From the NCBI RefSeq assembly GCF_000787575.1, contig NW_012236532.1:870612-934611 (forward strand): DNA of 64,000 nucleotides, given 5' to 3'. This document shows, in pieces, positions 12,320-22,428 of this stretch. The position numbers and the translations under genes are program-made. The notes beneath the pieces were generated by a model. It saw only the letters and a program-made list of their open reading frames with translations, did not search any database and was not told where the DNA came from. Numbering within the stretch: the first letter of the stretch is position 1; the number at the start of each line of letters is the position of its first letter. The DNA comes from Acytostelium subglobosum LB1. Taxonomy: Eukaryota; Evosea; Eumycetozoa; Acytosteliales; Acytosteliaceae.

Positions 12320-12444
12320 AAATTAAAAAAAAGAGGGAACACGAGGACTCAGGAAGGCCCAACACAGGTGATCACTTTGAGCAATGATTATCCAATCAAT
12401 TGCACAACAAACACATAACCAACTCAACAAATAAATAATCAAAG

Positions 12445-13941
12445 ATGTCGGACAACTATGTTGACAAGTTCAATGTGATTGTCAGAGAACTTAGTGTCAA
12501 TCATACACTTAGATCCAAGAAGTTGTATGTTTCCGTGGACTTTGACCAGTTTAAGCAGTGCAAGACAGAGGTGTTGCAGTCGACACATGACGGCAAGGCA
12601 CAATGGCCAAACACCTTTCACTTCCAATACGAGACAAAGTTCATTGATAAGCTCAATCGCAAGTTGTGCAAGCTGACACTTTACAGGAAGAAGAAGATTG
12701 GTTCGGATTCGATGGTTGGCCAGGTCCAGATCGACTTGCATACACTGGGTACCGGACCCGTCCAGCACGATGTATTGCTCACCAAGGGCACGGTTGGCGT
12801 TGGACGCACGACCTTTAAGCTCGAGATGCAGCACATCACACAACTACGCATTGACATTGCTCAGATTGCAGTCACCAACATGGACTCTAGTCTCTTCTCC
12901 AGCGCAAGCGACTCAACCAACTTTATTGAGTACTCACTAAAGTAAGTTCAAAGAGTTGACACCAAGAGAGACTTGTCACTGACCCACCTCGCATCGCACA
13001 TCTTGTATAGCAAGAACAATATAATCACAACTCAAAAGGTCACTGGATCATCATGTCCAACCTGGAACAAGTTGGCACCAATCACTCAGGTCATTTCCCT
13101 CAAGGATCTGGTCGACAGCCATGTACATATAGAACTCAAGGCTTCCCATGCACTCAAGAGCTCATCTCTTGCTCAACTAAAGGTATGTTTGTCCAGGTCC
13201 AAGGAATCTCAAGTACAACCCATCCTGACCATCACATCACATCCATGCCATCCATGTATCCAGATACCAATCAACAAAATATTCTCATTCATTGAAGGCG
13301 ACAACAAGGTGATCAATAGTGTGCTGCTAGACATGCATAACAAGAGGATGGCGGACATTCATATCAAGTTGCAATTCAATGATATCCCTCAGTTGGCACA
13401 GATGAAGGATGGCATTCATACAGAGACTGGCGTGCTCAATGGCCAGCCCTTCTTCTCTGGCGTGCCCCTGCCAAACATCCTTGGCGACATGTCCAAGCAG
13501 CAGTTGCAGCAACCAGAGCAGCATCTCCAGCTGCCACCAGGCTGGGAGGCCAAGGTGGACCGAATGGGAAGGACATATTACATCGATCACAACTCGCGAA
13601 CAACCTCATGGCACAGTCCAGTCGCAGTCAAACAGCCGATCGAGAATCGTTTGATCCAGTCCCAGCTGCGTCCTCTGAGCAGCAGCAGCGCTGAGAAGGA
13701 GAGACGTGAGAGGGCTGCCAAAATCATCCAGCGCACCTTTAGGAAACATAGAAAGGACCAGTATGAGCAGAGCCTCAGACGGCCATCCTACAGCCAGCAG
13801 CAGCAGGGCTACACGAGGTCGCCTCTGCCGCCAGGCTGGGAATGCAGGGTGGACGGCCGCGGCCGCACCTACTACCTGGATCATAACAACCGTGTGTCCA
13901 CATGGACGCCGCCCCAGCTACAGATGGCAAAGTCTAGATGA
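12445..13941 (+). CDS. C2-C2-WW-IQ-WW multidomain protein
   Basis: Uncharacterised scaffold-type protein of 448 residues from three exons (12445-12941, 13011-13182, 13264-13941). The N-terminal half looks like two C2-type beta sandwiches, at about residues 1-140 and 140-300. I do not see the full set of calcium-binding aspartates. Then come a first WW domain (LPPGWEAKVDRMGRTYYIDH, closing with T-S-W-H-S-P), an IQ motif (R-A-A-K-I-I-Q-R-T-F-R-K-H-R-K) and a second WW domain (LPPGWECRVDGRGRTYYLDH, closing with S-T-W-T-P-P). C2 plus WW is the NEDD4 arrangement, but there is no HECT ligase. The protein probably binds membranes, PPxY-type ligands and calmodulin. Confidence 0.85.
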
Positions 13942-14181: not shown

Positions 14182-15522
14182 TTAGAGCTCTTCGTCCAAG
14201 CTTGGAACTGTCAATGGATTATAACCATCATCACTGGCACCAACACCACGACCACTGTATACCGACATTGAACCACATGCTCGCTGTGAATGGGAAAAGG
14301 TTGAGATGTCAGTGTTTGTTTGATCGATGACACGATTGATAGATTATAACATACGCTGACCATTGAACCAAAGCGACACCATGAATCATAGTTTGGAAGT
14401 GCCGTCAATCCACATTTCTTGCCTCTCATTGTAATGTTAACCAGAAGTCCTCCAACGATGTATGCTGTGACGACTGAGAGAAGTCTACATCCCCGACACA
14501 AGCAGATGTTAGTCTTGTGAGTGAGAACGAGTGATTGCGTATACTTACATGATAATGAATATCCAACCTCCTCCAATTGAATGATGTTGTTGAGGATACC
14601 TGTCGATGCAATGTTGGGGATAGTTCACATTTGATGGATATCTATCGCCAGAGGGCATTGGTGTAGCCAACTGTGTGAAGGTGATCTGTGCGCGGTCTTG
14701 CACCAACGTCATGTTCCAATATTGATTGGTGTGATAATAGTAGAACACTCCATTGAAGAGTTTGGATGCATCTTGTATCAGCTGCACGGCAGTCTTGTTG
14801 GGCATGAACGTGACCTTCTCAAAGAATGTCATCAGCAGGTCCCATGTCGCCTCTTCCTGAGGGTCATCGATGAGAACCGCCTTTGTAGTCGCAAACAATG
14901 AGACGCGACCACGCATAGGTGTATCCACACCCGCGGTGATGTTTGCGGTCATCTGTGCGCCAAGGTTGTAAAGAGTGCGGAATGAAGCCCATGTGAAGTC
15001 ATCGCTGATTGAGCTGTCCAAGGAGGCGGTGTTGGTTGACGAGTCGACCACCTGGTAGGGGTTGTAGTATGGGTTGGTGTCGTTGTAGTAGCCCGTCCAG
15101 CAGAGGTAACGCTCGAGTGTGTAGCCATCGATCGTCATGACGTGCAGCTGCGCAGCCGACCAGTATGACGTGTTGAATTGTTGTGTAGTCTGTACGATGC
15201 CCTTGGCATTCCAGATGATGTCCTGCGTGTTGACGATGACCAAGGGGAAGAGTGCGGTCATGAGTGAAGGGCTTGACACATACTCCACAGTATAATCTTC
15301 ATTTGAATGGACTGTATGGAAATGTAGACCAGAGTGTAATACAACTACATCATTCAATAGTAGACCATATTGTTGTGTATTTGTTAATGGTGCTCTGACA
15401 TGATACACCTCTACACGCTCATCCATTGAGTAAGCATTGACATAGGCATTATTTTGTTGTCCAATGATATAGAGTACACATATCAACAACAACAACGATA
15501 TTGAACACTTATTGGTCATCAT
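14182..15522 (-). CDS. CLN5-like lysosomal protein with M6P-receptor-like membrane anchor
   Basis: Type I membrane protein of 401 residues from exons 14549-15522, 14355-14484 and 14182-14283. After a signal peptide, the lumenal part aligns with human CLN5, the Batten-disease protein reported to be a lysosomal BMP synthase and depalmitoylase. Matches are RVEVYHVRAP against DIEVFRLQAP, VVLHSGLHF against KIMHDAIGF, and DYTVEY against NYTMEW. The His and Glu of the reported catalytic triad are kept (His63, Glu80). The cysteine position (DCSKF in human) reads S-D-D-F, so Ser173 replaces Cys. The C-terminus (GGGWIFIIM then L-L-S-V-V-T-A-Y-I-V-G-G-L-L-V) and the tail (PNYDSW, YSGRGVGASDDGY, ending DEEL) resemble the mannose-6-phosphate receptor, not CLN5. 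Identification as CLN5-like rests on motif alignment by eye. Confidence 0.8.
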
Positions 15523-15694: not shown

Positions 15695-16633
15695 CTACTG
15701 GAGATAAACTCTTGAAAGATTGATTCGAAAGCCATTGACTGCTCCAACACAATGTATGATGATGTTGGGATCATTGGCTGTATTGTGGACTAATTCGAAT
15801 GGTACTTGTAAGGTCGAAACATTGGGGAATGCTTCAGTGAGGGTCTCGTGATCCGGTGTATATTGATGTGTTATGGATACTATAGGAACGAGGTTCTGGA
15901 AATACACTTGTTGCCACTGATGTTGTTGGAGATTTTGTCTTTCTTTGTTTGTCATTTGAATATATCTTTGAGCTACATATTCGTTGAAAGTAGAAAGATC
16001 CAGTTGTTCAAAATGTTGAATGTTTTGTTCTAACTGATTGATCTCATTGTCAACAATGGCAGCCTGGGAGACAACTAACTGTTCAAGGTTAAGTTGTTGT
16101 TGACCTAATGAAGTAAGTAAGTCAGTTCGGGAGAATAGATAGATATTTCTATATTTTGGGTCAAATAGTATTGCTGATTGAAGACCAGAAGTTATCAATC
16201 TACACATCTTGAGTTGTAACCAGAGTAATTCACTGCAAGCTCCTAATGCTTCTGAACGGCTTTCTATCCAGAAGTCTGGAGGATTATTGTTAAAGTGTAG
16301 CATCTTCATCTCTTCTGGGATCTGGTTCCAATTGACCTCAGAACTGAACGCAGTATCAGGCATCCTTAATTGATTTGTTTGATCTTGGGACTTGAGGAGG
16401 AACCTTGCAGAAGAATCGAATACTTTTCCATTGATGTTGTTCTCCCTGTTCCAACTGAAGAGTTGAGTTCCCAAATCCAATGCCCTAGAACTTTGTATCC
16501 CAGACATGCACTTTACACTCAAGATATTATGTCCTTCGGTTTCGATGTGAAGATCCCAGTTGTCCTTAACAAGTTTGATTATCTGTTGAGGACTAATTAG
16601 TTTGGATAAAGGGAAGAATGGAGATACATCCAT
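15695..16633 (-). CDS. Uma2/DUF820-type restriction-endonuclease-fold protein
   Basis: Intronless gene for 312 residues. The core follows the bacterial, especially cyanobacterial, Uma2 pattern: GKVFDSSARFLL, then MPDTAFSSEVNW, then PPDFWIESRSEAL, L-Q-L-K-M and I-L-F-D-P-K-Y-R-N-I-Y-L-F. This fold belongs to the PD-(D/E)xK nucleases, and Asp120, Glu124 and Lys142 fall at the expected places. The last third (about residues 175-250) is a glutamine-rich coiled coil followed by an unrecognised end. Uma2 genes are abundant in cyanobacteria and other bacteria and rare in eukaryotes, so acquisition from a bacterium is likely. The lack of introns fits this, although neighbouring host genes can also be intronless. 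Cellular role unknown. Confidence 0.8.
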   Translation of the reverse strand: MDVSPFFPLSKLISPQQIIKLVKDNWDLHIETEGHNILSVKCMSGIQSSRALDLGTQLFSWNRENNINGKVFDSSARFLLKSQDQTNQLRMPDTAFSSEVNWNQIPEEMKMLHFNNNPPDFWIESRSEALGACSELLWLQLKMCRLITSGLQSAILFDPKYRNIYLFSRTDLLTSLGQQQLNLEQLVVSQAAIVDNEINQLEQNIQHFEQLDLSTFNEYVAQRYIQMTNKERQNLQQHQWQQVYFQNLVPIVSITHQYTPDHETLTEAFPNVSTLQVPFELVHNTANDPNIIIHCVGAVNGFRINLSRVYLQ

Positions 16634-17232
16634 TGGACAAGAGACTGGAATTGTAATCAGTTGTGTATAAAGGGGATCAAAGTTTGGGAAAGTATATGTA
16701 TTATTGATTGTAATAAACTTGTTATATGTTGATTGATTTTACTTCCATTCTAATGGTAAACTTAGTGTAATATACTCAAGTTTATCTCCATGATGAGATG
16801 ATTCCATAATAAATAATTTAAAAAGAAGTATAATATATATATGATGGAGAGAACTATCAGCACTTGGATTATATATAACATGTAATGTAACTGAAGTGAC
16901 AATCATTCATTCATCCCCTTTCTTTACACACACGTCACAATTATTATTATTATTATTATTACTGTATTATTAGTGTCATTTGAGTTCGAACTCAATGCCT
17001 AATTTGGTAAAAGTATTCACGAATGTGATGAACTTTGATTAATTTATTTGAATGGAGTAGTCTTTACCACACACACCAACATGAACCAAAATATCTCTGC
17101 CCTTTGCAAATGTTGACCATCCCATCATCCGCCGAAAGGTAGGATGTGGAGTCAGTCTATTCGTATACTTGCAAACATATATAATCGATTATCTCTATCA
17201 TCAAAGCAGTCTTGATCAATCAATCTAATAGA
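16634..17232. other. Spacer between divergent Uma2-like and RhoGAP genes
   Basis: Upstream regions of both genes. It is AT-rich with TA runs near 16830 and a TTA/ATT trinucleotide microsatellite at about 16939-16962. No open frame is supported. Confidence 0.5.
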
Positions 17233-21303: not shown

Positions 21304-22428
21304 ATGAATAAAGTACTGTTATGTATCAGCTTTGTGCTGGCAATGGTTGCTGCCGCTAACGCAGATTGCATCTTCACCGACTCCAGCAACAACAAATACG
21401 ACTTCTCTAGCATGACCAAGTAAGCAAAAGAAAGAAAAAAAAATAGGGCAAACATTGTTGCAAAGGCCTACTTAAATGCAAATGGCAATGCAACTGTGTC
21501 CTGGTCACATGGACATCCATCCATGTTCAATCAATCAATCAATAACTTTATACTTACATTTGACTCGATCAATCAATCAATCAATCTAGCTCAACTCAAT
21601 ACTCATGGGGAACCAACTTGGGTGGTGCCAAGGTAAGTCATCATTGTCATTGACATTTATGGAATCATGTCCACTCAATCTAACATCTCATCAATCAATC
21701 AATCACACACGCACACACAAATAGTACTACTGGAACATCTGTAAGAACTCCTTTATTTGCTCTCAGTCATCCACTGGTTTGCAGGCAACCACTGCTGCCT
21801 GCCAGCTCAGCTCATCAATCTACAACAGTCTTGGTCTTCTTTCCTCTGGTGTGTTTGGCTCGTTGCCCTCTGGAGCTAAGGGTGCCACCCTCACCTACAC
21901 CGACTCTGTCCTGACCTGTGCCAGCAAGACCAAGGCTCGCAAGGCCCTCATCGACCTCCAGTGCGTCCCAGGTGCCTCCACCCAGACCGTCAGCGTTGCT
22001 GAGAACCCACCAGGATCATGCATCTACCAAATCGTCATGACCAGTGGTCAGGCCTGTCCAGGCGCTGGTGGTTCATCCTCCTCCTCCTCATCTGGTGGTA
22101 ACAATGGTGGTAACCACGGTATTGGCGGTGGCTGGATCTTCATCATCATGTTAGTATCTATATTTGTGCTCTGATCTGGAACATGTTGATTAACCTCATC
22201 AAACAATCCAATCAATCCAAACATAATAGCTTGGTTTGCACTGCTACTGTCTACATTGCTGCCGGTATGATCATCAACTTCAAGGTCCGTGGACTCCAAG
22301 GAAAGGAGATGTTCCCCAACTATGGCTTCTGGAGCGATCTCCCGGGCCTCATGAAGGACGGTGTCTTCTTTGTCAAGGGCAAGATCACCGGCACCAGCGG
22401 AGGCACGAGTGGATACCAACAAGTCTAA
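21304..22428 (+). CDS. Mannose-6-phosphate-receptor-like (MRH fold) membrane protein
   Basis: Type I membrane protein of 260 residues in four exons (21304-21419, 21590-21632, 21725-22149, 22230-22428). Signal peptide MNKVLLCISFVLAMVAAANA. The lumenal domain keeps the disulphide pattern of the cation-dependent M6P receptor and Atg27: A-R-K-A-L-I-D-L-Q-C-V-P aligns with human R-R-A-V-V-M-I-S-C-N-R. The final strand reads C-I-Y-Q-I-V-M where the receptor has C-F-Y-L-F-E-M, so the Glu used in mannose binding is apparently Val. Then come a Ser/Gly linker, GIGGGWIFIIM, the membrane span and a tail with FPNYGFWSDLPGLMKDGVFF. That tail closely matches the human [20 protein letters not shown]. Expected role: Golgi-endosome cargo sorting. 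True M6P binding is doubtful. Confidence 0.85.

What the first reader, a model, noticed from the sequence alone, without database searches (positions are those of the whole stretch)
14182..15522. CLN5-like enzyme domain fused to a mannose-6-phosphate-receptor-type membrane anchor and tail
The lumenal part aligns with CLN5, while the membrane span and cytosolic tail align with the cation-dependent M6P receptor (human FPHLAFWQDL and A-Y-R-G-V-G-D-D against PNYDSW and YSGRGVGASDDGY here). Human CLN5 is a lysosomal lumen protein without such an anchor. A CLN5 domain on a receptor tail would shuttle between Golgi and endosomes by itself, bypassing sorting receptors.
Basis: partly seen in the sequence, partly recalled or inferred. 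Interest (0 to 1): 0.82.

Follow-up and report, generated by a model that had tools for sequence, protein, structure and literature searches.

The report
Membrane-tethered CLN5 relative, active cysteine missing
A slime-mould gene joins a relative of the human Batten-disease protein CLN5 to the membrane anchor and tail of a Golgi-endosome receptor; the design is shared by several slime moulds, and this copy has a serine where the presumed active cysteine of CLN5 should be.

The parts
14549..15522 (-). Exon 1: N-terminal hydrophobic segment (signal-peptide-like), CLN5 domain, start of membrane span
14485..14548 (-). Intron 1 (GTAAGT...TAG, 64 nt), inside the anchor after GGGWIFII plus two bases, phase 2; same site as in Atg27-like genes of this genome
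14355..14484 (-). Exon 2: rest of membrane span and start of cytosolic tail (YIVGGLLVN...PNYDSW)
14284..14354 (-). Intron 2 (GTATGT...CAG, 71 nt)
14182..14283 (-). Exon 3: end of tail and stop codon
14665..15450 (-). CLN5 domain, residues 25-286
   Evidence: Pfam PF15014; fold match 6R99
15334..15336 (-). His63, aligned with human His166
15004..15006 (-). Ser173 (AGC), aligned with human Cys280
   Evidence: sequence
14430..14571 (-). Membrane span, residues 318-343, interrupted by intron 1
   Evidence: helix 318-343 in model; hydropathy 2.70 at 321-339
14212..14223 (-). YNPL, residues 389-392, YXXPhi-type tail motif

Best explanation
A type I membrane protein of a dictyostelid CLN5 subfamily that arose when a CLN5 domain acquired the 3' anchor (linker, membrane span, tail) of an Atg27/M6PR-like MRH receptor gene. 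Shown by computation: the architecture, its conservation, the grouping of anchored forms, the anchor's relation to Atg27-type genes, and Ser at the Cys280 site. Inferred: the topology; that the tail (YXXPhi, PN..W segment) carries the protein through TGN, endosomes and lysosomes via adaptor and retrieval machinery, so that the CLN5 domain is held at the lumenal face of those membranes. Cys-bearing sisters would be tethered lipid or acyl enzymes; this fast-evolving copy has most likely lost or changed catalysis and works as a binding or regulatory form.
For: Identical deposited model. CLN5 by Pfam, PDB sequence and fold. Same architecture in P0002-P0007 and in the C54 gene. Anchored rows on one side of a branch, 96/92 or 100/100. 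Best 19-residue hydropathy after residue 40 separates 7 anchored (2.21-2.80) from 10 soluble rows (0.73-1.49). Intron in the anchor at the same codon and phase in 2 of 3 anchored A. subglobosum genes and 4 of the 5 Atg27-like genes examined, splice sites read by eye. YXXPhi in 6 of 7 tails, shuffle p 0.014. Ser at the Cys280 site only here. Tajima rate excess in 4 of 5 tests, p 0.005-0.017.
Against: No localisation, expression or activity data. One Tajima test gives p 0.28. P0005 has FIPL, not YXXPhi, and the P0004 tail looks like a doubtful gene model. Serine can act as a nucleophile in other enzymes. At the human Glu183 site this copy keeps Glu, while the six deposited sisters have D or Q, so its site is not degraded everywhere. 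Departures at columns invariant in the whole family are not special to this row: 2 of 16 here, 2 of 16 in human, 5 of 19 in P0017. Only one assembly was seen; AGC is one base from TGC, two from the TGT that the C27 paralogue uses.
Confidence: 0.68

Rival explanations
1. Active enzyme with a serine nucleophile: the tethered CLN5 domain still performs acyl transfer or hydrolysis, with Ser173 in place of Cys.
For: His63 is kept, Glu is kept at the Glu183 site, and the fold is intact in the model; Cys to Ser is the mildest nucleophile swap.
Against: Cys in 18 of 19 lettered rows (together); faster evolution, with private departures at 15 of 64 anchored-invariant columns against 0 of 49 to 9 of 58 in the six others.
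Confidence: 0.2
2. Receptor or scaffold: the CLN5 domain on a receptor tail binds lumenal cargo or sorting partners, as human CLN5 is reported to bind sortilin and to affect Rab7 and retromer.
For: The other genes found with this anchor in this genome carry MRH-type lumenal parts; the human CLN5-sortilin-retromer link (PMC8195759 passages).
Against: No binding data; the anchored sisters keep the Cys, which suggests an enzyme.
Confidence: 0.3
3. Gene-model artefact: a soluble CLN5 gene run together with a separate anchor transcript.
For: The last two exons are short and carry their own profile match.
Against: Same fusion in five named species and a metagenome protein, and one open frame runs through CLN5 domain and span in C54.
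Confidence: 0.02
4. Decaying duplicate on the way to a pseudogene, or an assembly error at Ser173.
For: Longest end branch among the anchored rows (1.05), loss of the DG..F tail segment, rate excess.
Against: 401 codons open with canonical splice sites, His63 kept, YXXPhi kept.
Confidence: 0.12

Closest known systems
CLN5 (human, PDB 6R99; Pfam PF15014)
   Same: Same fold and domain; His166 site kept
   Different: Human CLN5 matures to a soluble lumenal protein from a type II membrane pro-form (PMC8195759 passages); here a C-terminal anchor; the Cys280 site is Ser
Dictyostelid soluble CLN5 (e.g. Dictyostelium cf. discoideum, P0015)
   Same: CLN5 domain
   Different: No span or tail found; keeps Cys; on the other side of the tree branch
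Atg27 (PF09451)
   Same: Membrane span, PN..W segment, terminal YXXPhi, intron site shared with Atg27-like genes of this genome
   Different: Lumenal domain is CLN5 instead of MRH
Cation-dependent mannose-6-phosphate receptor (PF02157)
   Same: Span and juxtamembrane tail profile match, residues 311-372
   Different: No MRH domain; distal tail not matched
Anchored CLN5 paralogues SAMD00019534_110930 (C27) and C54:454940-456123
   Same: Same architecture and genome
   Different: Both have Cys at the Cys280 site; C54 lacks the GGGWIFII segment and its intron

Membership tests
CLN5 family | CLN5 profile over the domain | tested here: met
   56.8 bits, cut-off 27
CLN5 family | CLN5 fold | tested here: met
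CLN5 family | Residue aligned with human Cys280 (recalled as catalytic) is Cys | tested here: not met
   Ser173
CLN5 family | Residue aligned with human His166 (recalled as catalytic) is His | tested here: met
   His63
CLN5 family | Soluble mature lumenal protein | tested here: inconclusive
   a hydrophobic span 318-343 and tail are predicted; topology and processing were not measured
CLN5 family | Acyl-transfer activity | not testable with these tools
   needs assay
ATG27 | Span and tail profile | tested here: met
   28.3 bits, cut-off 27; the six deposited sisters 34.4-53.6
ATG27 | MRH-type lumenal domain | tested here: not met
   CLN5 there instead; ATG27 match covers profile 186-242 of 261 only
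Mannose-6-phosphate receptor | M6P-binding MRH domain | tested here: not met
   match covers profile 158-218 of 254 only
Mannose-6-phosphate receptor | Distal tail sorting signals | tested here: not met
   profile match ends at residue 372; YRGVG-like stretch absent in sisters

The most novel reading that the evidence does not exclude
Dictyostelids hold a dedicated set of membrane-tethered CLN5 proteins, enzymes plus, in Acytostelium, a catalytically dead partner, whose receptor tail physically joins CLN5 chemistry to endosome-to-Golgi receptor recycling. As a fusion (Rosetta-stone) clue it would say that an old role of CLN5 is tied to the recycling of lysosomal sorting receptors, and could explain how a lumenal protein influences retromer cargo.
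Probability: 0.25. Interest if true: 0.8.

Novelty: new variant of a known kind. Interest (0 to 1): 0.58.

Why it matters
CLN5 is a Batten-disease protein reported as the synthase of the lysosomal lipid BMP (start of the abstract of PMC13015511) and linked to receptor recycling through sortilin, Rab7 and retromer (PMC8195759 passages). A natural fusion of CLN5 to a recycling-receptor anchor, with Cys and Ser paralogues in one amoeba, gives a way to separate a catalytic from a trafficking role. Ten paper searches (open-licence PMC papers only, capped lists of titles and abstract openings) listed no paper whose title or abstract opening describes a CLN5 fused to a receptor anchor; CLN5 with Atg27 returned 0 papers. 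This does not show that it is absent from print.

Tried and rejected
A first structure job with six sequences gave pLDDT 44 and was not used. Viral contigs: P0018 patterns matched nothing; three stretches matched the A5 pattern but none encoded a relative. Pfam gave no family at E up to 1 for the C54 read-through frame, though it is 42% identical to P0003 over 59-355, 251.8 bits; the Pfam CLN5 search of the genome did not list C54 either, so counts by profile alone were too low. An anchored CLN5 was not found in Dictyostelium; only soluble ones came up from D. purpureum and D. cf. discoideum. The search needs shared words, and one search scored only the 7998 candidates sharing most words, so this is not proof of absence. 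The idea that the tail mimics M6PR YRGVGDD was dropped. Other lumenal domains on the same anchor were looked for in the window's genome: besides the three CLN5 genes, seven genes turned up (C16 twice, C56 in the window, C48, C12, C53, C49). An MRH-type lumenal part is backed by profile matches reaching upstream of the anchor for both C16 genes and C56 and by a CIMR match for C53; for C48, C12 and C49 it rests on reading the frames by eye. The rate and private-departure script used 16 rows: P0008, P0016, P0018 and C54 were left out. The two trees used 19 rows each: without C54, without P0018.

Full report
Source and gene. The window is G000:C56:870612-934611, in a genome of 30.7 Mb in 56 contigs. 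Its protein is deposited as SAMD00019534_036900 of Acytostelium subglobosum LB1, 401 aa, 100% identical over 100% (the record is labelled partial). My own splicing of the minus strand gives the same 401 residues from exons 15522-14549, 14484-14355 and 14283-14182.

Anchor and tail. Residues 311-372 match Man-6-P_recep (29.3 bits, cut-off 25.4) and 312-367 match ATG27 (28.3, cut-off 27). In the six other deposited anchored proteins ATG27 scores 34.4-53.6 and passes in 6 of 6; Man-6-P_recep passes in 3 of 6 and scores lower than ATG27 in 6 of 6. The model has helices at 5-22 and 318-343; no dedicated signal-peptide or topology program was run. The window gene and C27 have an intron after GGGWIFII plus two bases of the next codon. 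By my reading of donor and acceptor the same codon and phase is used in 4 of the 5 GGGW-bearing Atg27-like genes examined; C16a has none there, and C54, the third anchored gene, has neither the GGGW segment nor the intron. This points to capture of an Atg27-type 3' end. The tail holds YNPL; 6 of 7 tails hold YXXPhi, shuffle p 0.014, though the P0004 tail looks like a doubtful gene model. For yeast Atg27 a tyrosine sorting motif and a retrieval sequence in the short tail are described (PMC8008255, abstract and passages).

Relatives. Three protein searches found anchored CLN5 in A. subglobosum (P0001, P0003), Cavenderia fasciculata (P0002), Heterostelium album (P0004), Tieghemostelium lacteum (P0005), Polysphondylium violaceum (P0007) and one metagenome protein (P0006). 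A genome search with P0003 added a third A. subglobosum gene at C54:454940-456123, which Pfam does not recognise. CLN5 genes without an anchor sit at C22 and C40. On the tree of CLN5 domains the anchored rows lie on one side of a branch, 96/92 (with P0018 on a long branch beside them) or 100/100 (without P0018; the program warns there that long branches meet). Order within the anchored group is weakly supported.

The nucleophile. The site of human His166 is His in 19 of 19 rows, and the first-exon frame of C54 reads FHSGLYF there. The site of Cys280 is Ser in the window protein, Cys in the other 18 lettered rows and a gap in one (P0016), over the 20 distinct rows. That Cys280 and His166 are the catalytic pair is recalled from Luebben et al. 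2022: the title was seen in reference lists and the paper is not held. The third position, human Glu183, is Glu here, D or Q in the six deposited sisters, and reads Glu in the C54 frame. The window copy departs at 15 of 64 columns otherwise invariant among anchored proteins, against 0 of 49 to 9 of 58 in the other six; at columns invariant in the whole family it departs at 2 of 16, no more than human (2 of 16) and fewer than P0017 (5 of 19). Tajima tests show excess change in 4 of 5 choices (p 0.005-0.017) and not in one (p 0.28).

Working. Shown by computation: architecture, conservation, grouping, anchor kinship, Ser173. Inferred: type I topology, cycling by tail signals, tethered CLN5 chemistry in the Cys sisters, altered or lost chemistry here. 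Human CLN5 is described as binding sortilin and affecting Rab7 and retromer recruitment (PMC8195759 passages) and as the BMP synthase (PMC13015511, abstract opening and one passage); older Dictyostelium work reports glycoside hydrolase activity for soluble Cln5 (PMC9686302 passages), so the chemistry of the family is itself not settled. That a receptor tail is fused to this domain fits those links but does not prove them.

Verdict. The M6PR label should be widened to Atg27-type, the YRGVGDD point dropped, and the word enzyme qualified for this copy.

Noticed in passing
window 21725-22428, + strand: 3' part of an Atg27-like gene with MRH-type lumenal part and the same anchor, ending in YQQV, about 6 kb from the CLN5 gene.
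   Followed up: partly
window 15695-16738, - strand: Open frame matching Uma2 (PF05685, putative restriction endonuclease family) at 36.5 bits, just upstream of the CLN5 gene; as I recall, a mainly bacterial family.
   Followed up: no
P0018, 384 aa metagenome protein: CLN5-like protein (hhalign 98.9% to the family) that keeps His and Cys and ends in a hydrophobic stretch unlike the Atg27 anchor, a possible second anchored CLN5 design.
   Followed up: partly
G000 C54:454940-456123, - strand: Third anchored CLN5 gene of this genome, with Cys, without the GGGWIFII segment and its intron; not listed by the Pfam CLN5 profile.
   Followed up: partly
G000 C53:1658388 and C49:1177452: Two further anchor matches preceded by M6PR-repeat-like lumenal frames; the C53 piece matches CIMR at 30 bits, the C49 one was read by eye only.
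   Followed up: partly
window 12439-13941, + strand: Frames with two WW-like stretches and an IQ-like stretch (motifs recalled, not run through Pfam).
   Followed up: no
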